DNA from: Pseudobdellovibrionaceae bacterium
GTDB lineage: Bacteria > Bdellovibrionota > Bdellovibrionia > Bdellovibrionales > Bdellovibrionaceae
Assembly: GCA_947449255.1 (NCBI GenBank)
Contig: CANFQX010000002.1
Coordinates: 1 to 64,000 of the forward strand
Reading direction: 5' to 3'
DNA: 64,000 nucleotides
Every line of letters begins with the position of its first letter. The first letter of the stretch is position 1. The notes under the pieces are model-generated. The model was not told the origin of the DNA, did no database searches, and saw only the letters and a program-made list of their open reading frames with translations. Below are positions 1-12,975 of this stretch, piece after piece. A program made the translations under genes and the position numbers.

Positions 1-719
1 GAAGCAGTCACAACGTATTTGCTGTCGGGACTAAATGTGGCGCTCCTGACCGAATCCCTATGCTGAATGATAAATAGTTCTTTTTGGGTTGCTACTTCAT
101 AAATCTTGGCTGTTCCATCATGCGAAGCCGTCACAACGTATTTGCTGTCGGGACTAAAGATGGCGCTATTGACCTGACTACCATGTGCGATAGTAAACTT
201 CTCCTCGGGATTAAATACCTTGGTTTCCTTAATCACTTTATTCTTTTCCCGTTGATCATCCCTTTTTAATTGATCAGCCTTAGCTTGTTTTTTCTTAAAC
301 GACTGACTGATTTCAAAAAATCGATCTTTATAAAGCTGTTGGTAAGATGGATCGAGCTGGATCAATCCTGCTGTTTCGCGCTGGAAAAAATCCAAGGCTT
401 GAATAAATTCGTTTTTGCTATTGAAGCTATTCTTTTGTATTCGCAGTTGAAGCTCTATTAAATTGTCGATGCGGGATACAACTTCTGCTTGTGAAAGAGA
501 AATTGCAGGTTTAGATAAACTAGATCCTGCCCCAGCCAAAGCTTTAGAGTGTATAGCCGCTGCAGAATCCGCCAAAAAAATATTTGAGCATACATTAGAC
601 CCAGCAAATGCAGCAGGAGAGACGAAGATCAGCCCTGAAGTAAGTGCGCTCATTGCGACACCTACCCTATTGGCACTGGATGAGATTTTCCATAAATTCT
701 TAATTTTAAAATTCTTCAT
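1..719 (-). CDS. Exported WD40-repeat protein, copy 1 (C-terminus beyond window)
   Basis: I translated this from the minus strand; the frame is open from an ATG at 719 to the window edge. It starts with a long signal peptide ending in SPAAFAG, then a CSNIF motif, then a helical stretch of about 110 residues rich in Q, K and E. WD40 repeats of about 41 residues follow (AFSPDSKYVVTAS, AKIYEVATQKELF), and the first one and a half are visible. GAGGA lies 8 bases before the ATG. The helical region and repeats are clearly homologous to the complete WD40 protein at 4163-5659, so the two are paralogs on either side of the AAA+ gene. The 31-base gap to the AAA+ gene suggests co-transcription. The role is probably a beta-propeller interaction scaffold outside the cytoplasm; the partner is unknown. 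Confidence 0.85.
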   Translation of the reverse strand, partial: MKNFKIKNLWKISSSANRVGVAMSALTSGLIFVSPAAFAGSNVCSNIFLADSAAAIHSKALAGAGSSLSKPAISLSQAEVVSRIDNLIELQLRIQKNSFNSKNEFIQALDFFQRETAGLIQLDPSYQQLYKDRFFEISQSFKKKQAKADQLKRDDQREKNKVIKETKVFNPEEKFTIAHGSQVNSAIFSPDSKYVVTASHDGTAKIYEVATQKELFIIQHRDSVRSATFSPDSKYVVTA

Positions 720-750
720 GTCAAATTTCCTCATCCAAAAAATCCTTCGC

Positions 751-3700
751 TCAATGACTAGAGCTTATCCACAGCTGGCGTTGAGATGTCGACGCAAACA
801 ATCCGGGGTACAAAGTTGGGTTTGCTTGAATCAGGGACCTTTGCTCTTTCATGAACTGCGACATATTTTTATTCAAAACATTGACCATTTCATCAGCTTC
901 AAATTTAAGATCTTCAAGCGTCTTTTTTTCGCGACTGTCAATTCTATCCATCAATGATCCCATGTCTTTTTCTACGACTTTGTAGAAAATCATTCCTTCA
1001 CTGTTATAGTCATGGGTGATTCTGTAGACCCCATTAAACCCAAGGTACAGTTCACTCAAGGCGACTAAATCTGTGGGATCAAAGCGATTTCCACTTTGAC
1101 GAATTGCCCGTGGCGAGGTTCCCGATAATATTTTATTAAGGAGCACCGTGCCCTTGAACTCCTTAAGGATGGTTGAAATCGCTGAACGATTGCTTTCGCC
1201 TCGTGTATTCATGTAAAAATCAGGAAACGAAGTTGGCTCAGCATTATGCATTTTTCGCTCGGCTTCTGATCTTTTAACTGTCTCAGATAGAAAGCTTTGA
1301 TGGATCTGGGATAAAAGTTTTAATTCTTGCCGTTCTAGGCTGTAAGACTTAGCAAGCTCAGTCAGGGGATAAATAAAGAGTGGACTTTTAAGTTTAACAT
1401 CGACCCCAAGATTCATACGGCGATGAAACTCTGACAAGCTGTCTGGTGTCAGCTTATTCAGCGAGTAGGCCTTCGTCTGAATACGATCAAAGATTGGGAA
1501 AGCTGTAGAAAAATCACCCAACCCGGTCACGAACTCTCCCGGTGTAGAGTTCGTAGCTATAACTACTGCAATCAAATTCGAGGCAATAATTTCATCGCCA
1601 TCCAAGAGTTGCCGTTCGTTAAGCAAAGACAAGAGTGAAGTTTTAACACCAGCTGGTGCTTTTTCAAATTCATCTAGCAAGGCAAAAAGAACATCTTTTG
1701 AAGATAAAGAACCTGTTCGATTATAAACATAGCCCTTGCCATCGCGAATGGCTTTTAAGTCAATACGACCGACGATATCACCTTCATTTGACATTGGATG
1801 AAATTGTTTAATCCAAATTGGACTGTCTGATTTCCCATTTTCAAGCAAGGCCTTGCTCAAAATCGAATTTGTGGCTGCCAGTTGGGCTTCATTCAGGTTT
1901 TTTACCTCAGCCTCAAGCAAGGTTCTTGTGAACAAGGTTTTTGCGGATCCCGGTGGACCAAAGAGCATTACATTCGTTCTGTTCATCATCGCTGAAAAAA
2001 GAGCCTTTACATTCGACTCAGACTCAAGAAAGCGATATTTCAGCTCATCAAAGGCGTTTCGTAATGAGACAGCAGAGGCATCTTCTATTTTCTCTTTGTC
2101 ATTTCGTTTTATTGATTCAGAAAGCAGAGCGTTGGCGCGACGGGCTCTGTTTTCATAATACTGCTCCGAACGGTCATAGGCTTCCCGCGTGGTCAGAGTC
2201 ATTTTTGTATTTTTTAACTGCGCCATCATTGTATTTGAGGCAGCGAGAAATTCAGCGTGCGATTCATCAATCGTTGTTAACTGTTTTCTGGAAGCCTCAC
2301 GCAGTGTGGATTCATTTCCATTGAGAAGCTCATTCATTCGACCCGTGAGTTTGTAATTGAGGGGGACATCATGTTTCGCTGACTTAAGTTGCCCAAGGTG
2401 AATTTGACCGAGTGTTTTATTGAGATCCCCATATTTTTGATACATCGGATGATCTGTGTCCATCAGTAAATTTTCAGTTGAAAATCCTATTTCTTCACGC
2501 ACGTCGGGATCAAGTGTTAATAGTTTACCTGACTTAATGTCAAATTTGACATGACGTTTTTGTCCCGTTCGCGCAGAGACATAAGTCAGCATTTGCAGAT
2601 CCTTATTGTACTCACCTCGCGAAAGATTCAAACTTGATAATTTTTTGTTTTTTGAATTAGAAAGGGGAATTGAAAATGCGCCATTAGAATTGACCTGATA
2701 AAAGCTGACCTTCACCCCTTTATCAGCAACCATAGTGTCAGGTCCCCCTTGCAAAAGTGCAGGCGAGAGATCCACTAAATCTTTTGGTCCCATGGTCAAA
2801 TTGAGGGACTCAAAGGGAACCCCCGCCATCATTTGTCGAACTAAAAATGAAGACTTCCAAAGCACCAATAACTTTGACTGAGTTCGCGTTGATCCAGAAA
2901 AAGGAGGGAAATAATCTGGGGCCGACTGGGTCCCCTGAACGTCAGCTTGAGCTTTCGCTAATTTGTCCGTGTAATACCGATCCATATGCAGCGAAAGTGT
3001 CGTCATGGCCGCCAACATCTGATCGGGAATTTTGACCTGCTTCATGAGTGGACGCAAGCCTCTGACATCAATCACCGTGAACTTGTTTTGGCCTTTTTTA
3101 GATTCAATTTTCTCAAGCATTAAAAAAAGACTGTCGGCATTTTCAGAAGCATTGATCACATGAACTTTTAAGGCAAATCGGTCAATCAAGGCTCTGCGAC
3201 CTCCAATTTCATGAGGCAACGCCTGACTGATCATCTCTCCAAGTGTCGCATTTGTGGTTCCTGCTAAGGACTCAAGGGCTGTTTGCACCACTTTATTGCC
3301 GGCCAAGGCTTGCCGTTCATTTAAGATGGATAGCAATGTCATTTGCAAAGCGACTGGCGCCTTTTCAACTTCATCAAGTATAGCAAAAAGATTCTTATCA
3401 CTGATGAGGGCCTTTGAATAATCGATCTCATATCGACCTTGCTCAGTGAATTTAAATGGATCTGGACCGCCCAAGATTTTGGTCTCGCTTAATGTCGCGT
3501 GAAACTGCTGCGTAAAGATCTGTTTTGATGGATCGTTATTAACTTTATCTTCCCAAATTGTTTTGAGCAACTCCATCTTAAAGGCATCAATATCAGCGCG
3601 AGCCGGAGCCCCATGGACCGCTCTTAATTGAGCTTCAAAGATATTTCGAATCCCAAGAGTCTTTGCGCCACCACCCGGCCCATCGATCAGAATATTTTCC

Positions 3701-4002
3701 TTAGCCATCAAGGCTGTGAGTGTGTAGTAAAAAACATTATCTAAGCCATAGACATCAGCCATCAATTCATTGACGCCGTGGCGAGAGATCTCCCATGAGG
3801 CTGACAACCTATTAAGATGGTTCAAATCATCCGCCATTAGGCCTGCAGGGCCTTTTAGTGCCTCATTTAAAGGTTGGTTGATAATTTGATCAGTAAAAAT
3901 TCCGTCACAGAACGGATGGGTTGTGGCAAAGGAATGACTAGACAGGTTTAACAGTAAAAATCCAAGAGCTGCTGCAGATCTATAATTTCTAGAGAATTTC
4001 AT
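751..4002 (-). CDS. Exported protein with two MoxR-type AAA+ ATPase domains
   Basis: The 1083-residue protein begins with a basic n-region, a hydrophobic core and an SFA-TT cleavage-like site, then CDGIF. Domain 1 has Walker A GPGGGAKT near residue 108 and Walker B FAILDEVEKAP near 205, followed by the MoxR hallmark LLSILNERQ and an arginine-rich IGGRRALIDRF. Domain 2 has Walker A FGPPGSAKT near 680, Walker B FALLDEFEKAP near 776, LLSLLNERQ and a sensor-like VVIATNSTPGEF. MoxR proteins normally remodel partners in the cytoplasm together with VWA proteins. A Sec-type signal on such an ATPase is odd, because the periplasm lacks ATP. The gene lies between two WD40 paralogs and near the exported VWA gene at 5883. 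The domain calls are secure; the export call rests on the N-terminus only. Confidence 0.88.
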   Translation of the reverse strand: MKFSRNYRSAAALGFLLLNLSSHSFATTHPFCDGIFTDQIINQPLNEALKGPAGLMADDLNHLNRLSASWEISRHGVNELMADVYGLDNVFYYTLTALMAKENILIDGPGGGAKTLGIRNIFEAQLRAVHGAPARADIDAFKMELLKTIWEDKVNNDPSKQIFTQQFHATLSETKILGGPDPFKFTEQGRYEIDYSKALISDKNLFAILDEVEKAPVALQMTLLSILNERQALAGNKVVQTALESLAGTTNATLGEMISQALPHEIGGRRALIDRFALKVHVINASENADSLFLMLEKIESKKGQNKFTVIDVRGLRPLMKQVKIPDQMLAAMTTLSLHMDRYYTDKLAKAQADVQGTQSAPDYFPPFSGSTRTQSKLLVLWKSSFLVRQMMAGVPFESLNLTMGPKDLVDLSPALLQGGPDTMVADKGVKVSFYQVNSNGAFSIPLSNSKNKKLSSLNLSRGEYNKDLQMLTYVSARTGQKRHVKFDIKSGKLLTLDPDVREEIGFSTENLLMDTDHPMYQKYGDLNKTLGQIHLGQLKSAKHDVPLNYKLTGRMNELLNGNESTLREASRKQLTTIDESHAEFLAASNTMMAQLKNTKMTLTTREAYDRSEQYYENRARRANALLSESIKRNDKEKIEDASAVSLRNAFDELKYRFLESESNVKALFSAMMNRTNVMLFGPPGSAKTLFTRTLLEAEVKNLNEAQLAATNSILSKALLENGKSDSPIWIKQFHPMSNEGDIVGRIDLKAIRDGKGYVYNRTGSLSSKDVLFALLDEFEKAPAGVKTSLLSLLNERQLLDGDEIIASNLIAVVIATNSTPGEFVTGLGDFSTAFPIFDRIQTKAYSLNKLTPDSLSEFHRRMNLGVDVKLKSPLFIYPLTELAKSYSLERQELKLLSQIHQSFLSETVKRSEAERKMHNAEPTSFPDFYMNTRGESNRSAISTILKEFKGTVLLNKILSGTSPRAIRQSGNRFDPTDLVALSELYLGFNGVYRITHDYNSEGMIFYKVVEKDMGSLMDRIDSREKKTLEDLKFEADEMVNVLNKNMSQFMKEQRSLIQANPTLYPGLFASTSQRQLWISSSH

Positions 4003-4162: not shown

Positions 4163-5659
4163 TCACTCGTCATCCACGGTTCGATATATCTGGATGATCT
4201 TAGCTGTGTTATCATCTGAAGCAGTCACAACGTATTTGCTGTCGCGACTAAATTCGGCGCTTAAGATATAACCACCATGCGAAATACTAAATAGCTCTTT
4301 CTGCGTTGACACATCATAAACTTTGGCTGATTTATCACTTGAAGCAGTCACAACGTATTGGCCGTCGGGACTAAATGAGGCGCTAATGACCCAACCACCA
4401 TGCTGAATACTAAATACCTCTTTTTTGGTTGCTACATCATAAACCTTGGCTGTCCCATCTTTTGAAGCAGTCACAACGTATTTGCTGTCGGGACTAAGTG
4501 CCACGCTCCAGACCTTATCACCGTGCGGAATACTAAATAGCTCCTTTCGGGTTGCTACCTCATAAATCTTGGCTGTTTTATCACTTGAAGCAGTCGCAAC
4601 GTAGTTGCCGTCGGGACTAAAAGCGGCGCTATTGACATCCTCGCCGTGCGGAATACTAAAAAGTCCCTTTCGGGTTGCTAAATCAGAAACCTTGGCTGAC
4701 TTATCACTTGAAGAAGTCACAATGTATTTGCCGTCAGGACTAAATACAGCGCTATTGACATAGGCCCCATGTCGAATTTTGAATAGCTCTTTTTGAGTTG
4801 TTACATCATAGACCTTGGCTGTGCCATCTCCGGAGGCAGTCACAACGTATTTACTGTTAGGACTAAATACGGTTCCATAGACATATCCACGATGGGAAAT
4901 AAAAAAAAGCTCTTTTTGAGTTGCTACCTCATAAACCTTCGCTGTTCTATCCTCTGAGGCGGTCGCAACGTATTTACCGTCGGGACTAAAGGCGGCGCTC
5001 CTGATCCAATCATCATGCTGAATGCTAAATAGCACTTTTTGAGTTTTTACATCATAAACCTTGGAAGTTTGATCGTATGAAGCGGTTACAATGTATTTGC
5101 CGTCGCGACTAAATGCAGCGCTCCTCACCCCACCACCATGCTGAATGCTAAACTTTTCTATGGGATTAAATATTTTGGCTTCCTTAATCTCTTTATTCCT
5201 TGCCCGTTGATCATCTTTTTTTAGTTGATCATTCTTAGCTTGTTTTTTCTTCAGCGACTGGCTGATTTCAAAAAATCGATCTTTATAAAGTTGTTGATAA
5301 GATGGATCGAGCAGCATCAATCCTTTTGTTTCACGCTCGAAAAAAGCCAGGGCTTGTATAAATTGATTTTCACTCTCGAAGCTTTTCTTCTGTATTTGAA
5401 GTTGTAGCTCTATTAAACTGTCGATTCTGAAAATAAACTCTGCATGGCTAAGAATTAATTTTGGATTGGCGGGACTTAATTCTCTCATGTTAAAAAATTG
5501 ATCTTTCCTGAGCATGACTGAATCGTCTACAAAAATATTTGAGCAAAGATTTGAAAAACTCGAAGCCGAGGCCAAGCCAGAAGCAAGTACACTCAGTGCC
5601 AGACCTACCTTCGCGACGCTACACGAAATTTTATTTATCTTATTCATATCTTTTCCCAT
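4163..5659 (-). CDS. Exported WD40-repeat protein, copy 2
   Basis: The 498-residue protein has a signal peptide (residues 1 to about 33, ending ASGLASA), then CSNIF. A charged helical segment of about 110 residues follows (LDPSYQQLYKDRFFEISQS), then eight WD40-type repeats of 41 residues each up to the C-terminus, for example FSPDGKYVATASEDRTAKVY. Eight repeats would make one closed 7- or 8-bladed propeller. Two starts are possible: ATG 5659, with AGGA 7 bases upstream, or ATG 5647, with GGGA 6 bases upstream. The paralog at 1-719 shares the whole layout. The protein probably serves as an interaction platform for the neighbouring AAA+ and VWA proteins; this is inferred from context only. Confidence 0.9.
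   Translation of the reverse strand: MGKDMNKINKISCSVAKVGLALSVLASGLASASSFSNLCSNIFVDDSVMLRKDQFFNMRELSPANPKLILSHAEFIFRIDSLIELQLQIQKKSFESENQFIQALAFFERETKGLMLLDPSYQQLYKDRFFEISQSLKKKQAKNDQLKKDDQRARNKEIKEAKIFNPIEKFSIQHGGGVRSAAFSRDGKYIVTASYDQTSKVYDVKTQKVLFSIQHDDWIRSAAFSPDGKYVATASEDRTAKVYEVATQKELFFISHRGYVYGTVFSPNSKYVVTASGDGTAKVYDVTTQKELFKIRHGAYVNSAVFSPDGKYIVTSSSDKSAKVSDLATRKGLFSIPHGEDVNSAAFSPDGNYVATASSDKTAKIYEVATRKELFSIPHGDKVWSVALSPDSKYVVTASKDGTAKVYDVATKKEVFSIQHGGWVISASFSPDGQYVVTASSDKSAKVYDVSTQKELFSISHGGYILSAEFSRDSKYVVTASDDNTAKIIQIYRTVDDE
4200..5160 (-). repeat. Tandem WD40 coding repeats, 8 x about 123 bp
   Basis: Each 41-residue blade is encoded by about 123 bp. Blocks such as GCAGTCACAACGTATTTG recur almost unchanged from blade to blade, and the same blocks occur in the paralogous gene at 1-180. 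Such identity permits unequal recombination within the gene and between the paralogs. Confidence 0.85.
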
Positions 5660-5854: not shown

Positions 5855-5882
5855 GGTAAATTAAAAATAACCCGAGGTGCAT

Positions 5883-8800
5883 GTGAAGAATAAAATAATG
5901 CGAAGCCTATCTACATATATGGTCATCTCGTTTTTTATTTTAAACCCAGCCATGGCTGCGGATAGCACGAATAAATGTTCAAATATTTTTAGCTCAACAA
6001 ATGATCATCAGGGTTCTGTTGATCCAAGCGGAAATGACGATCAATCCTTAGAACTTCAAAGCAAGGCGCTTTTAGAAAGCTCTTTGACAAACATTCAAAA
6101 ACAAATCGAGGAGCTTCGCGCAAGGCCTGAGGTCGTTGGTAAGAAACATCCCAGACAGGGTTTTTTGAACTCAATAGATGAACTGGGCAAATTTCAAAAC
6201 AAGCTTTATGACGCTTTCCCCCTCTTAAAAAGGTTTGAGCGGCTTGAAGTTGAGATCGGCCGCCGTGGCCAGCAGATCACACTCGAAAAATTCAATCTTT
6301 ATCACAAAAATTTAAACCGCTACACTTTTCAAAATAACGATAAAAACAAAGTTGAATTACAGTTCTGGGCCAAAATTGAAGCCCTTGAAATCCTCTTACG
6401 TATTAGTCAGAATATTTCGCTGCAGCAAGGACAACAAGGACAACAAGGAAAACAAGGACAACAAGGACAACAAGGACAACAAGGACAACAAGGACAACAA
6501 GGACAACAAGGACAACAAGGACAACAAGGACAACAAGGACAGCAAGGACAACAAGGACAGCAAGGACAAAAGGACCAACAAGGACAAAAGGAAAATAAGT
6601 CTGCTAAAGAATCGCTCCAAAAGTTGGATGAGCAGTCTTTTGATGAATATGACATCCATAATAAAGATTTGCAGAGCTCATCTTCAAAGGAAAGACCTCA
6701 GTTCGCTTACATGTATTTGACTGCGGCTCCAAAAAGACTTTTGCGCGCAAGCTCGTTCGATACTATTGACCAACACATCAAAAAGATTTCTTCAATTCGT
6801 CAACCGCGTTTGCCTCATCTTGGAAACTTGCAGGGCACTGCATTTTCGCAATCGATGCTCATCATTAATCAACAAAAGGCACAAGTTCTTACGATTCCTT
6901 ACCCCTACGGCGTGCATCCAATAGTCGGTGACTATAAGGACTTTACAGTTCGCGAGACTTTTTCAGATGAATTTGTTGTTCAATCTAAAAACCAAAATCC
7001 ACTTCCGAAAAAAATAAAAATTGGAATGGAATCTGAAACTGCAACTCAGTTAACTATGGCACAAAGGATGGAATACACTAAATCGAGTGGTATTCAGCTC
7101 CAGCAATGGCCGGACCATGTCCAATCGGGTGTTGCCGCATCTAAATCAGAAAAAAACTCAATCAGCCAAATTGATGTTCTCAGCAACTGGTTCCAAAAAA
7201 ATGGGCCCTACCTTTACAACTCACGAAACAAGGGAATGGAAGAGGCCTTCGATCAGGTTCAACAGAATATTCAAGCTCAGATGGGTTCTAAGCCCTTTGA
7301 ACTTATCCTAGCCGGTGAAAAAATGTTTAACTGCGATGGGGCCGCCTTGATCGGCGCCCGACTTGTTCGCGATCAATTTGGCTTACCCGCCCGAATTGTT
7401 GGCGGACGAACTATTTCAGCCCAGCTTCAAAATAAGAAAGGCTTCAAAATCCTGGCTTCGAACATCAAAGATCCTCGTCATGCTTGGGTAGAAGTATTTA
7501 TTCAAGGACGATGGATGCCATTTGATTTCACGCCCTCAAAAAATGCTCCACAAAATGACAGCAACGGGGATGCCAGTAAAAATCAGCCACCACAAGATAG
7601 CGATTCAGCCTCAGGTGATCAACAAGGTCAACAAGGTCAGCAGGGTCAACAAGGAGGCCCATCTGGACAAGGGGGCCAAGGCTCCGGTGGAAATTCAGGG
7701 GGCATTGTAAACAAAAGTGCTCGTGGTCATGGTTCAGAGATGAAACCCAATGGAAATCACGATCAGTCAGGTGACAATAAGGATTCGAAAGATTCGAAGG
7801 ACGCCAAAGATTCTAAAGATCAAAAGGGTTCGGATTCAAAAAATGCAACAGAATCAAAGGACAATTCAACTAAAACTCAAGACCCAAATTCTACTTCAAA
7901 GAATGGCGAGCGCAAACGATCCAACAATCGACAAGACTTGAATCAAGAAAATATTCATGAGGTCAGTCGTCTGCCCAAAGACTATGATTCAATTGAGGGT
8001 GCTCTCATCAGACAGATTCTGTCCGATGCACTGACGGACTTTAAAACCAAGGGGCCTTCAAGTCTGGTGACTATCGACGTCGAAGCCAAATTAAGTAACA
8101 TTGGAAAACAAAGTCGATTCAAAGAGAAAGCTAAGCTCGATCTGCGGACTGATCTTGAGCCCTTCTACCGTGACAATGACAAGTCCATATCTGAACTGCT
8201 TGCTGAAATTAAAAGCGGTATTTATCGTGATCCAACGACGAGCTTCCGCAAGCTTTCAGTCATCGTCCATTTCTTTAAGTCAGTGAACCGATACAGAGAA
8301 CTGTCGGATTATGAAAAAGAATTTGTGCGATCAAGCCAGGAAATTTTGCACAAAATGTCCAGCTATCGCCACCGAAATTCTGGTCAGCATGATCTAGTTG
8401 AAAGAATGGTCAAAAATCTTCCCGGCGAATTGATGAAAGAGTACATTTTGAAAAAGTATCCAGAAGGATTAACCATAGGATCGAGGGATCAAAAGGCCCT
8501 TTTCGATGAAATCCAACATGGTGATTGGATGGCGGCTTTTGAGGCTTCCTTGATTAATAAACATTTTAATTTTCTTTTGGATGCAGAAAAAGAATCACGA
8601 GTTCGTCGAATCCAAACTATTTTAAGATCCTATAAACGAGAACGACAAAGCGAAGGGCTGGTCACTGCAACATTAAAGGATATTGCTGACTTTCAACGGT
8701 GGATTTTAGATCCGGAAGTCAGTAACGACACTGCCATGACCTTTCTTTCAAAGCTCATCAAAGATGAACAATATATGATGGGAAATAGAGAAATGATCAA

Positions 8801-9770
8801 TAGCCCAGGGCGGACGCAACCGATCGAGCGCAAACATACAAACGTCTTTTTCGACATCAGCGGCTCAATGAGCGGCGATAAAGCTGAAGTCCAATCCGCA
8901 GCCTTGATTGCGATGGTGGATCGATTCCTTTCAGAAAAAGATCCCTATGGAAAACCTTTGCACACCGTGATGTTATTCCCCTTTGGCGACAGTGTTGGTC
9001 AGGGCATTCTGATTGAGAGTCGTGAACAGGCTTTGTCCTATATAAAAAGCAATTTCAATCGCCCGACAGCGTCCAACGAAGGCACTGCGTTTCAGCCTTG
9101 TTTTGACAAGCACTTTGAAGTCATCCGTAAACTTGCACAGGATAACAACTTAAAGCTTAAAATACGAAAAACAAATATGGTTCTGATTACGGATGGAGCA
9201 GCCGATGTCAATTTAGAAAAGGTCAAAAAGGATCTAAACAGTTTGCCTGAATATATCAGGACCTTTTTCAATTTGGTTACAATGAGCAATGAAGCTAATC
9301 CCGACCTTGAAAAAATAGTTGCAGCAACGAACTCAGAAAAATCTAAGGCAATGATCACCCAGATTTCTGATCAGCAAATGAGTCAATTTAAAAATGAGGC
9401 ACGCAACCCAAAGATTGACCCTGAAGCCTTTGTCTTTGAAAAGACTGAGAACCTCTCAATGGATATCGTACAGCAGGTGCAAAAGCTCCAGATTCCCGCT
9501 TCGCCAGCTATCGATTACCATTCAGTTCTTTTAAAAAATAAAGATCGAATCAAGGGTGTTCAAAATATGGAGCCCAATACGTCTGCATTGACTGAACTGG
9601 TGAGATTGAGAGAGCAAATGAAGGACTCTAAATTGCCAAAAGAATTAATGATTAGACATCTTGCGACTGTACTAGAAAATTATCCACGTTGGTTTAATCG
9701 AAATCTCAGCCAATTAAGTTATGCCGAAGAAAAAGTACTGCATGATATTATTGATAAGTTGGTGCAATAA
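5883..9770 (+). CDS. Exported transglutaminase-like / von Willebrand A fusion protein
   Basis: About 1295 residues. I chose GTG 5883 because GAGG lies 5 bases upstream; GTG 5877 would overlap that site, and ATG 5898 lacks one. Order (numbered from 5877): signal peptide ending NPAMAA, CSNIF motif, helical region, a GQQ tract (about 185-238), a middle region, a transglutaminase-like core with Cys in NCDGAAL near 485, His in DPRHAWVEV near 535 and Asp in MPFDFTPS near 548. Then come a long Q/G- and D/S/K-rich linker (about 560-690), a helical region, and a VWA domain from about 985 with MIDAS motif DISGSMS. MoxR gene clusters commonly encode a transglutaminase-fold protein and a VWA protein separately; here both are one exported chain next to an exported MoxR protein. 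Confidence 0.88.
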   Translation: MKNKIMRSLSTYMVISFFILNPAMAADSTNKCSNIFSSTNDHQGSVDPSGNDDQSLELQSKALLESSLTNIQKQIEELRARPEVVGKKHPRQGFLNSIDELGKFQNKLYDAFPLLKRFERLEVEIGRRGQQITLEKFNLYHKNLNRYTFQNNDKNKVELQFWAKIEALEILLRISQNISLQQGQQGQQGKQGQQGQQGQQGQQGQQGQQGQQGQQGQQGQQGQQGQQGQKDQQGQKENKSAKESLQKLDEQSFDEYDIHNKDLQSSSSKERPQFAYMYLTAAPKRLLRASSFDTIDQHIKKISSIRQPRLPHLGNLQGTAFSQSMLIINQQKAQVLTIPYPYGVHPIVGDYKDFTVRETFSDEFVVQSKNQNPLPKKIKIGMESETATQLTMAQRMEYTKSSGIQLQQWPDHVQSGVAASKSEKNSISQIDVLSNWFQKNGPYLYNSRNKGMEEAFDQVQQNIQAQMGSKPFELILAGEKMFNCDGAALIGARLVRDQFGLPARIVGGRTISAQLQNKKGFKILASNIKDPRHAWVEVFIQGRWMPFDFTPSKNAPQNDSNGDASKNQPPQDSDSASGDQQGQQGQQGQQGGPSGQGGQGSGGNSGGIVNKSARGHGSEMKPNGNHDQSGDNKDSKDSKDAKDSKDQKGSDSKNATESKDNSTKTQDPNSTSKNGERKRSNNRQDLNQENIHEVSRLPKDYDSIEGALIRQILSDALTDFKTKGPSSLVTIDVEAKLSNIGKQSRFKEKAKLDLRTDLEPFYRDNDKSISELLAEIKSGIYRDPTTSFRKLSVIVHFFKSVNRYRELSDYEKEFVRSSQEILHKMSSYRHRNSGQHDLVERMVKNLPGELMKEYILKKYPEGLTIGSRDQKALFDEIQHGDWMAAFEASLINKHFNFLLDAEKESRVRRIQTILRSYKRERQSEGLVTATLKDIADFQRWILDPEVSNDTAMTFLSKLIKDEQYMMGNREMINSPGRTQPIERKHTNVFFDISGSMSGDKAEVQSAALIAMVDRFLSEKDPYGKPLHTVMLFPFGDSVGQGILIESREQALSYIKSNFNRPTASNEGTAFQPCFDKHFEVIRKLAQDNNLKLKIRKTNMVLITDGAADVNLEKVKKDLNSLPEYIRTFFNLVTMSNEANPDLEKIVAATNSEKSKAMITQISDQQMSQFKNEARNPKIDPEAFVFEKTENLSMDIVQQVQKLQIPASPAIDYHSVLLKNKDRIKGVQNMEPNTSALTELVRLREQMKDSKLPKELMIRHLATVLENYPRWFNRNLSQLSYAEEKVLHDIIDKLVQ
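6429..6572 (+). repeat. Nine-base minisatellite GGACAACAA, 16 units
   Basis: Sixteen consecutive 9-base units code for GQQ (variants GKQ and GQK), with degenerate continuation to about 6593. Because the unit is a multiple of three, gain or loss changes the linker length but not the frame. A shorter GQQ run recurs near 7620-7660 in the same gene. Confidence 0.95.
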
Positions 9771-9774
9771 GATT

Positions 9775-9799
9775 CAGAGGGTTAACGCTAAACCCTCTG
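9775..9799 (+). terminator. Hairpin after the VWA gene
   Basis: Five bases after the stop codon, CAGAGGGTT and AACCCTCTG form a perfect 9-bp stem around a 7-base loop. The following TATTTT is a weak T run, so termination efficiency is uncertain. Confidence 0.6.
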
Positions 9800-9914
9800 T
9801 ATTTTGGCAATTCGTCAATGTTTCACAAAGGCAATCCTAACTTCAACCTAGGCTATCGTTGAGGTCGCGAAATTCAGCTCACTTATTTATTGATTGTTCA
9901 CTATACTAAAACCA

Positions 9915-11322: not shown

Positions 11323-12975
11323 TTAGAGATAGAGTTCTGCAGTTGCAGGCGCTATGATATCCAATAAATTATTAAATGTACTTGCAACTTGCATCGCTAC
11401 AGAGGGGCCTTCTTTGCTATCCACTTTATTGATTTCGCCATTTTTCTTATACGAGACTTGGATTGTTCCAAGACCAGGACGACTTACAACTGAAGGTTTA
11501 CCATAGCGCTCTTCATAATCAATCTTAACAACTTTTTTGGCCTGATCAATGATTGTCGCAATTCGACCTCTATTGTCGTAAGTCATGGATATTTTTTGGC
11601 CATCACTGTTTTGCGCAGAAGAGAGGTTGCCTTTCGCATCATAATTGAATGATGTTTTTTTCGTCGCAACTTTGACTCCTTTTGCATTTACAAAAGTAGA
11701 GCTGACCTCATTGACCTTTTTAAATTTCTGATCATAGGCATAAGCCATTCGCACATTCGCATTCGATTTAGTCTTTACCAAACCATCTGGATAGTATTCG
11801 AAAGTCACACGGTCCGTATTTTTTCTGATTGAAATCGGCTTGCCGAACACCTCATGATAACTAATATCCGTGACATTTCCTGTGATATTAGTCAAAACAC
11901 GCTGAAGAAAGACTTGGCCATCGGGTCTTTGCTGATGCCAGAATTCATACCTATTGTCAGCGATGACTTCTTTACCACAAGTTCGTTTAACCGTAGACCA
12001 ATAGTGATTTTTTGGATCATTCGGAGAAAACTCATAAGTGTAAGATTCAATACACTTATCCCTGTCCGTGAAAGCCAGAACCCAATCATTTTTTTTGTCA
12101 TATTTCAAAGCAACAAAAGTATTATCCGGCCAGTTTGCCTTGGTTAAGTTGTGAAGCTCATCGTACTCATAGGTATAGGTCTTTAACCAAGCATTCTTCA
12201 CCGAAGACAAATCATCGAGGTTTGCAAAAGTATATTCGGCCATCAAGCCATTTGGACCCGTAATCGATTTCACTTTCTTATTTTGAAAGTATTTAAAAGT
12301 GAGTCGACGTCCTACGTTGTCTTCTATTTGTGAGATCAAATCTTTATCATAAGCAAATTTTAGAACATTTGAATTTTTGTCATAGATGTGGGTCAACTTG
12401 CCTTGCAAATTGTAGCGTTGCGAACTTCCATCTGGCAAATTTCGAGTGTAATAGGTTTTATTGAATACAAAATGTTCAACCTCTCGGCCGTTGGCATAGA
12501 ATGTCGCCCCCTCACGAACGGGTGGGGTTAATCCATATTTTGTGGCGTATTCAGTTCTTACATTATCGTCTTCAATCAACTGACTTTTTAAAGTAACAAA
12601 AAAAGCTTCGGTATTTCCGACTTTCTTTTCTGCTTTAATTTTTGCTATGATCGAATCCACAGTTTTTTCCACATCTTTTCGACCGACTTCGCGCTGTGAA
12701 TAGGTGACTTCCAGCCCCCCACCACATTCTTTAACTTTGATATTTCCCTCAGCATTTATTTCCATGCTTGTTTCAAAGTCTGAACACCATCCGAAACCAA
12801 ACATTCCATTAAAAAGAGATCGGCTGTTGTAGGTTCTAGTGATTTTCAAATCATAGCCAGTCCCCGGTACATCCATATCAACCCAGGTGTTGGAATAATT
12901 TGCATTCTTCATGTCTACAAGTGCATAGGCTTGCGCCGACAAAAATAGGGCTGCTGCCAAAAGTATCTTATTCAT
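11323..12975 (-). CDS. Exported RHS/YD-repeat protein, candidate Bd0109-like
   Basis: The 550-residue protein has a short signal peptide (residues 1-18, ending AQAYA). Near residue 50 it has the RHS-type N-terminal signature YNSRSLFNGMFGFGW, and many YD-type repeats follow to about 500 (for example YDKNSNVLKFAYDKD, YDAKGNLSSA, YDNRGRIATI). It lacks the long shell and variable toxin tip of polymorphic RHS toxins, so it is more likely a wall- or surface-associated structural protein. The position between the Tad operon and a small exported protein matches Bd0109 of the Bdellovibrio hit locus. That equivalence is inferred from synteny. Confidence 0.82.
   Translation of the reverse strand: MNKILLAAALFLSAQAYALVDMKNANYSNTWVDMDVPGTGYDLKITRTYNSRSLFNGMFGFGWCSDFETSMEINAEGNIKVKECGGGLEVTYSQREVGRKDVEKTVDSIIAKIKAEKKVGNTEAFFVTLKSQLIEDDNVRTEYATKYGLTPPVREGATFYANGREVEHFVFNKTYYTRNLPDGSSQRYNLQGKLTHIYDKNSNVLKFAYDKDLISQIEDNVGRRLTFKYFQNKKVKSITGPNGLMAEYTFANLDDLSSVKNAWLKTYTYEYDELHNLTKANWPDNTFVALKYDKKNDWVLAFTDRDKCIESYTYEFSPNDPKNHYWSTVKRTCGKEVIADNRYEFWHQQRPDGQVFLQRVLTNITGNVTDISYHEVFGKPISIRKNTDRVTFEYYPDGLVKTKSNANVRMAYAYDQKFKKVNEVSSTFVNAKGVKVATKKTSFNYDAKGNLSSAQNSDGQKISMTYDNRGRIATIIDQAKKVVKIDYEERYGKPSVVSRPGLGTIQVSYKKNGEINKVDSKEGPSVAMQVASTFNNLLDIIAPATAELYL

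What the first reader, a model, noticed from the sequence alone, without database searches (positions are those of the whole stretch)
751..4002. MoxR-type double AAA+ ATPase with a signal peptide
The sequence shows two complete AAA+ domains with Walker A and B motifs behind an N-terminus with basic residues, a hydrophobic core and a cleavage-like site. MoxR ATPases are known as cytoplasmic. The periplasm has no ATP, so either the N-terminus is a membrane anchor of unusual topology, or the protein acts after delivery into another compartment. For a predator, the prey cytoplasm would supply ATP; that is speculation. It is part of the locus at 1-9.8 kb.
Basis: partly seen in the sequence, partly recalled or inferred. 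Interest (0 to 1): 0.85.

Follow-up and report, generated by a model that had tools for sequence, protein, structure and literature searches.

The report
Exported MoxR ATPase–VWA machine
A rare gene island in a bacterium of the predatory Bdellovibrionota carries an ATP-driven protein-remodelling motor and its partners, all marked for export out of the cell and all bearing the same single-cysteine tag at the front end, although the space outside the cytoplasm should hold no ATP to drive it.

Summary
The 1083-aa ORF at 751-4002 (-) starts at a Shine-Dalgarno-backed ATG with a Sec-type signal peptide, followed by two complete MoxR-type AAA+ domains. It is not an isolated oddity. In 24 Bdellovibrionota genomes I found 28 tagged MoxR homologues with signal peptides (28 of 28 by a start-blind test; canonical short MoxRs 2 of 21, both false). 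Most sit beside an exported VWA protein, usually with a transglutaminase-like domain, and often beside exported beta-propeller or FGE-sulfatase-fold proteins.

Nearly all components share a tag just after the signal peptide, C-x3-[L/F/Y]. In 21 MoxRs that cysteine is as invariant as the Walker residues, and only 3 other cysteines occur in 19,227 residues. MoxR and VWA have or lack the tag together. The ATP-site residues are invariant, so ATP use appears selected in a protein that leaves the cytoplasm.

Best reading: an exported variant of the MoxR-vWA ternary conflict systems, held together through the tag and powered by ATP from prey or lysed cells. Export is well supported; ATP source, target and tag chemistry are inferred. 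The island is strain-specific: 1 of 24 genomes in its genus.

The parts
751..4002 (-). exported tandem MoxR AAA+ ATPase, 1083 aa (stop codon 751-753)
3925..4002 (-). Sec-type signal peptide, residues 1-26 (predicted cleavage SFA|TT)
   Evidence: own heuristic, not SignalP
3895..3909 (-). cysteine tag C-D-G-I-F (C32 to F36); the only cysteine of the protein
3658..3681 (-). Walker A of AAA+ domain 1 (GPGGGAKT)
   Evidence: invariant G108 G111 K114 in 21 homologues
3370..3387 (-). Walker B of AAA+ domain 1 (FAILDE)
   Evidence: invariant D210 E211
1936..1959 (-). Walker A of AAA+ domain 2 (GPPGSAKT)
   Evidence: G682 G685 K688 T689 invariant in the 10 tandem homologues
1669..1686 (-). Walker B of AAA+ domain 2 (FALLDE)
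4163..5659 (-). exported WD40 beta-propeller protein, 498 aa, signal peptide then tag CSNIF; 160 bp upstream of the MoxR gene, same strand
   Evidence: (WD40 E 2.4e-70, 8 stretches)
3..734 (-). second exported WD40 protein with tag CSNIF, cut by the contig end
5877..9770 (+). divergent partner: exported protein with transglutaminase-like and VWA/MIDAS domains, 1297 aa (start GTG 5877 or 5883), tag CSNIF
6426..6592 (+). collagen-like 9-bp repeat (CAAGGACAA) inside the VWA gene
7332..7526 (+). transglutaminase-like triad C484, H533, D548
   Evidence: C and H nearly invariant, D invariant in 14
8853..9194 (+). VWA MIDAS: DISGSM (D991), T1068, D1104
   Evidence: invariant in 14
9775..9799 (.). bidirectional terminator-like hairpin at the right edge of the island
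   Evidence: the scan finds no more terminators than shuffles
9800..9893 (.). right boundary: genes from 9894 on are syntenic in congeners, the island is not

Best explanation
This is an exported, extracytoplasmic variant of a MoxR-vWA ternary system. Sec exports every component: a tandem-AAA+ MoxR motor, a VWA/MIDAS protein that also carries a transglutaminase-like cysteine-hydrolase domain, and separate recognition modules (WD40 propellers here, FGE-sulfatase folds elsewhere). After signal-peptide cleavage each component shows one cysteine in a C-x3-[LFY] tag. I infer that this tag joins the components to each other or to one shared anchor, most likely by disulfide. The recognition module binds a target on or in another cell; the VWA domain couples target and motor; the MoxR ring uses ATP to remodel the target or to unleash the transglutaminase-like domain. 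ATP would come from the other cell: prey cytoplasm leaking into the bdelloplast, or a lysing neighbour. Shown: export signals, tag, intact ATP, MIDAS and hydrolase residues, gene linkage, patchy presence. Inferred: complex assembly, tag chemistry, ATP source, target.
For: Signal peptides in 28 of 28 tagged and 5 of 5 untagged homologues against 2 of 21 canonical. Invariant in 21 MoxRs: C32, G108, G111, K114, D210, E211, N251, R275. Body cysteines 3 in 19,227 residues, 162 expected at the exported-protein rate of the same genome. Tag position +4 is L/F/Y in 45 of 48 MoxR and VWA proteins against 17.7% background. Tag as the only cysteine: 0 of 149 signal-peptide calls in a sample of about 474 kb of the same genome outside the island. 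MoxR and VWA tags co-occur in 24 loci; both are absent in L170 and in genome G202; no discordant pair. VWA partner: MIDAS invariant and triad nearly invariant in 14. Propeller or FGE modules separate and tagged, or fused to MoxR; the helical module before the FGE domain of MoxR in L034-L036 is homologous to the N-terminus of separate tagged proteins in L033. Patchy: 27 of 357 genomes, 24 of 177 genera, 0 of 23 other genomes of the genus for the MoxR protein; inserted beside a conserved gene.
Against: No experiment. Periplasm is thought to lack ATP, so an intact ATPase outside is hard to power. The named hosts are metagenome assemblies of unknown lifestyle, so prey supply is not shown for them. 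No route from periplasm to another cell is recognised in the island. The tag's chemistry is unknown, and untagged lineages exist. The structure models were too poor to use (pLDDT 57 and 40). The related sequences are not independent, so P values overstate.
Confidence: 0.5

Rival explanations
1. Envelope defence: the complex sits in the cell's own periplasm or on its surface and is gated by extracellular ATP. ATP spilt by lysed neighbours, or by phage or predator attack, switches the MoxR-VWA machine on.
For: Same component logic as the intracellular conflict systems of Kaur et al.; patchy, strain-specific presence; exchangeable recognition modules.
Against: No known effector besides the transglutaminase-like domain; PADLOC gave no relevant match for the four locus proteins scanned.
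Confidence: 0.22
2. House-keeping chaperone of the envelope: the AAA+ ring hydrolyses little or no ATP outside and serves as a nucleotide-free or ADP-locked scaffold that assembles an adhesin or a surface complex.
For: Known MoxR-VWA pairs are assembly chaperones (NorQD, RavA-ViaA; search listings and abstract starts).
Against: Walker A lysine, Walker B acids, sensor N and arginine finger are invariant in 21 homologues; a dead scaffold would drift. Absence from 23 congeners argues against house-keeping.
Confidence: 0.18
3. The signal peptides are misleading: the proteins stay in the cytoplasm or are anchored with the body inside.
For: Cytoplasmic ATP would solve the energy problem; SignalP not run.
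Against: 33 of 33 start-blind calls against 2 of 21 controls; positive n-regions; AXA-like sites; partners with the same signals; cysteine loss.
Confidence: 0.06
4. On the tag only: it is a sorting or attachment signal (a lipid, wall or secretion handle) rather than a bond between components. This can be true alongside the best explanation.
For: It is present on nearly all components and absent together in two lineages, which a shared receptor explains as well as a mutual bond. One tagged protein outside the island, L125 13794-14876, carries TLTCSKVF.
Against: No lipobox in most; spacing from the predicted cleavage site varies from 1 to 19 residues.
Confidence: 0.4

Closest known systems
Beta-propeller MoxR-vWA ternary conflict systems (Kaur et al. 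2020, PMC7159879; Pfam PF20030 bpMoxR)
   Same: MoxR plus vWA pair, beta-propellers, variable accessory proteins; PF20030 is the best Pfam match
   Different: Here all components are exported and nearly all tagged; propellers are separate or on MoxR, not C-terminal to vWA; P-loops in the window are GPGGGAKT and GPPGSAKT, not GXXXTAKS (seen only in some relatives); the paper's text has no occurrence of 'signal peptide' or 'Bdellovibrio'
VMAP ternary systems with FGS/C-type-lectin sensors (Kaur 2020; PMC10907252)
   Same: MoxR, vWA and FGE-sulfatase-fold sensors; one sensor in PMC10907252 has a signal peptide
   Different: No VMAP protein identified; in the passages seen the signal peptide is on a sensor, not on the MoxR motor
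RavA-ViaA of E. coli
   Same: Closest solved MoxR by sequence (RavA, E 3e-9); MoxR-VWA pairing
   Different: RavA model far below its cut-off (35.9 of 681 bits); cytoplasmic, single AAA+, no tag (recalled)
Plasmodium HSP101 of PTEX (PMC6550532)
   Same: Works like: an AAA+ ATPase working outside the parasite, at the vacuole membrane in a host cell (passages)
   Different: Clp/HSP100 family, different architecture, no VWA; analogy only
Bdellovibrio MIDAS adhesin Bd0875 (PMC11003981)
   Same: Exported VWA/MIDAS protein of a predator, with proteins secreted into prey (passages)
   Different: Lipobox adhesin, no MoxR partner described in the passages seen

Membership tests
MoxR AAA+ ATPases | MoxR/AAA_5-type domain match | tested here: met
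   PF20030 E 2.9e-24, AAA_5 E 5.4e-18 with 2 stretches
MoxR AAA+ ATPases | intact Walker A, Walker B, sensor 1, arginine finger | tested here: met
MoxR AAA+ ATPases | helix-2 insert of the MoxR clade | not tested
   structure model too weak
MoxR AAA+ ATPases | VWA partner encoded next to it | tested here: met
   MIDAS protein at 5877-9770
MoxR AAA+ ATPases | cytoplasmic location (usual, not strictly defining) | tested here: not met
   signal peptide, (prediction)
Beta-propeller MoxR-vWA ternary systems | propeller fused C-terminal to vWA | tested here: not met
   no propeller match in the 5877-9770 protein; propellers are separate proteins
Beta-propeller MoxR-vWA ternary systems | third component with variable N-terminus, TPR and propeller | tested here: inconclusive
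   third components have propellers; no TPR match in the proteins scanned
Beta-propeller MoxR-vWA ternary systems | P-loop GXXXTAKS ('often') | tested here: not met
   window GPGGGAKT, GPPGSAKT; L039 and L046 GPPGTAKS, L041 GPAGTAKS
VMAP ternary systems | VMAP protein as third gene | tested here: not met
   no VMAP match in the locus proteins scanned
RavA | NF010054 equivalog cut-off | tested here: not met
   35.9 of 681 bits
Lipoprotein | lipobox [LVI][ASTVI][GAS]C at the cleavage site (recalled motif) | tested here: not met
   window C32 is preceded by HPF; spacing from the predicted cleavage site varies
Tat substrate | twin arginine in the n-region (recalled motif) | tested here: not met
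   MKFSRNYRSAAALG

The most novel reading that the evidence does not exclude
A categorically new kind of molecular machine: a modular AAA+ motor complex that a predator exports, knits together outside its own cytoplasm through a shared N-terminal cysteine tag, and runs on the ATP of the cell it attacks, with exchangeable propeller or FGE-fold modules that choose the target.
Probability: 0.35. Interest if true: 0.95.

Novelty: new variant of a known kind. Interest (0 to 1): 0.82.

Why it matters
An ATPase under clear selection to keep its ATP site, yet carrying a Sec signal in every tagged relative found, breaks the rule that ATP-driven remodelling stays in the cytoplasm. If it runs on prey ATP, it would be a bacterial counterpart of the exported AAA+ unfoldase of the malaria parasite and a testable handle on how predatory bacteria work inside prey. 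The shared cysteine tag is a simple sequence signature that can find further members and points to a way of assembling complexes outside the cytoplasm.

Tried and rejected
Rejected: false start (next starts at codons 56, 60 and 66 would lose the invariant C32). Rejected: Tat or lipoprotein export. Not supported: phage origin; the viral scan with A1 found none, with A3 only a hit on the collagen-like repeat (L169). Rejected as evidence: AlphaFold models of MoxR (pLDDT 57) and of a third component (pLDDT 40); no fold search was run on them. The loose form of my signal-peptide caller gave false calls on canonical MoxRs when internal starts were allowed, hence the start-blind test. The 19 'other' components were picked partly because they bear a signal peptide and a cysteine, so the counts that include them (55 of 55 against 19 of 74 with a cysteine in the first 20 mature residues; 41 of 55 against 2 of 74 for the stricter motif) are biased; the main counts use MoxR and VWA proteins chosen by homology. 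The N-terminal module of the window's WD40 proteins did not match the MoxR C-terminal module significantly (E about 0.4 to 1.1 where listed). Left out of the pair count: L041 (VWA N-terminus in repeats, no signal called), L016 (contig end), L044 (VWA in pieces). L037 MoxR is truncated (747 aa) with a long ORF downstream, taken by eye for a transposase. VWA-profile hits without a readable tagged N-terminus or MoxR neighbour in the stretch taken (L176, L177, L179-L182) were not counted either way. The genome-contig scan with the window protein alone found nothing; with A1 it gave 8 loci, one of them a weak Streptomyces match.

Full report
What is there. The window begins at the start of contig C2 of its genome. 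Four genes form an island at 1-9.8 kb. On the minus strand lie a WD40 protein (4163-5659), the MoxR protein (751-4002) and a second WD40 protein cut by the contig end (3-734); on the plus strand, divergent, lies a 1297-aa protein (5877-9770) with a transglutaminase-like domain, a VWA domain with MIDAS and a collagen-like repeat. The MoxR protein has two full AAA+ domains with intact Walker A, Walker B and arginine-finger residues.

Signal peptide. The ATG start has a good ribosome site and is followed by a Sec-type signal peptide with an S-F-A cleavage site. SignalP was not available, so I wrote a simple caller and tested it. With the start chosen by ribosome site and codon alone, 28 of 28 tagged homologues and 5 of 5 untagged exported homologues are called, against 2 of 21 canonical short MoxRs from the same phylum; those two calls fall on the Walker A region and are false. 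In the looser form the caller takes 149 of 412 ORFs of a sample of about 474 kb of the same genome, so single calls mean little; the family-wide pattern is the evidence.

The family. The protein search in relatives found 3 of 59 genomes including its own, and 0 of 23 other genomes of the genus; in the class 18 of 143. I took wide regions and found MoxR homologues in tandem form (two AAA+ domains) or single form, 489 to 1394 aa. The 28 tagged MoxRs come from 24 genomes (my tally of the keys). In 24 loci both the MoxR and the VWA N-terminus can be read and both are exported and tagged; the VWA of L040 is counted although my caller misses its signal-like start. Named relatives of the tandem form are all metagenome assemblies of Bdellovibrionota.

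The tag. Within the first 20 residues after the predicted cleavage site, each tagged MoxR and VWA protein has a cysteine, followed four residues on by L, F or Y in 24 of 26 MoxRs and 21 of 22 VWA proteins, against a background of 17.7% for these residues. In 21 MoxRs this cysteine is invariant together with Walker, sensor and arginine-finger residues. In the MoxR bodies other cysteines are almost absent: 3 in 19,227 residues; 162 would be expected at the rate of signal-peptide proteins of the same genome, 42 at the rate of canonical MoxRs. In the own-genome sample, 36 of 149 signal-peptide calls have a cysteine in the first 20 residues and 9 have C-x3-[LFY] in the first 24, but none has it as the only cysteine. 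The tag co-varies: in L170 (genome G340) and in genome G202 both MoxR and VWA lack it (in G202 they lie on different contigs), and no discordant pair was seen; a naive P is 0.003, ignoring kinship. Four untagged G202 MoxRs have 5 to 10 cysteines. I read this as selection for one reactive cysteine per component, most simply for bonds between components or to one shared anchor.

Partners. In 14 aligned VWA proteins the tag cysteine and the MIDAS residues are invariant, and the transglutaminase-like C-H-D triad is invariant or nearly so. Third components, chosen partly by eye, are WD40 or other propellers (window, L032, L033, L114, L184; L030 weakly) or FGE-sulfatase folds (L114, L178; L112 weakly), with several lacking a Pfam match. 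In L034 an FGE domain is fused to the MoxR C-terminus (L035 and L036 align with it), and in G202 a WD40-like or an FGE/lectin-like tail follows the AAA+ domain (sequence read, no family search). A helical module before the FGE domain in L034-L036 is homologous to the N-terminus of three separate tagged proteins in L033 (phmmer E 5e-11, 3e-6 and 8e-4). Fusion in one place and separation in another argues that these parts work together; for the window's own WD40 proteins that module match is not significant.

Distribution. The VWA profile is found in 27 of 357 genomes and 24 of 177 genera of the phylum; some of the weaker hits may be VWA proteins outside this system. In four congeners the genes from window 9894 on are syntenic, while to the left they have groEL and other genes. 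The island is therefore strain-specific and probably gained laterally. This resembles conflict or predation accessory genes more than house-keeping.

Mechanism. Shown by sequence: export signals, tag, intact ATP, MIDAS and hydrolase sites, linkage, patchiness. Inferred: one complex; tag chemistry; ATP hydrolysis outside; target. An invariant ATP site implies use, so ATP must be met somewhere after export. For a predator living in prey periplasm, leaking prey ATP is the simplest source; extracellular ATP from lysed cells is the other. Bdellovibrio proteins are reported to be secreted into prey (PMC11003981, passages), and an exported AAA+ motor at a parasite vacuole is known in Plasmodium (PMC6550532, passages); both are analogies.

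Literature. The closest described systems are the MoxR-vWA ternary systems (PMC7159879; section 22 read, passages), where 'signal peptide' and 'Bdellovibrio' do not occur in the text, and PMC10907252 (passages), where one sensor has a signal peptide. Searches brought up no exported MoxR in the titles and abstract starts listed; PMC9980616 reports a mycobacterial MoxR1 acting on host cells but no signal peptide (passages). The library holds only open-licence papers, so absence from print is not shown.

Noticed in passing
L125 13794-14876 (own genome, contig C3): An exported protein outside the island has a tag-like start TLTCSKVF; weak DUF3626 match. The tag may be used more widely.
   Followed up: partly
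4199-5152: About eight 123-bp blade repeats (75% matches) in the WD40 gene: blade duplication, possibly a diversifying recognition surface.
   Followed up: no
L110, L111, L172-L175 (genome G202): Several exported, untagged MoxR copies, P-loop GGPGGSKT in the four read, some with a WD40-like or FGE/lectin-like tail: a lineage-specific expansion.
   Followed up: partly
L042 (genome G121): Two separate single-AAA+ exported MoxRs in one locus, with large tagged paralogues including a 2110-aa one.
   Followed up: no
11323-12975: Exported RHS-repeat/DUF6531 protein conserved in four congeners beside pilus-type ATPase genes.
   Followed up: no
6426-6592: Collagen-like repeat inside the VWA partner, a length-variable type of sequence.
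   Followed up: no
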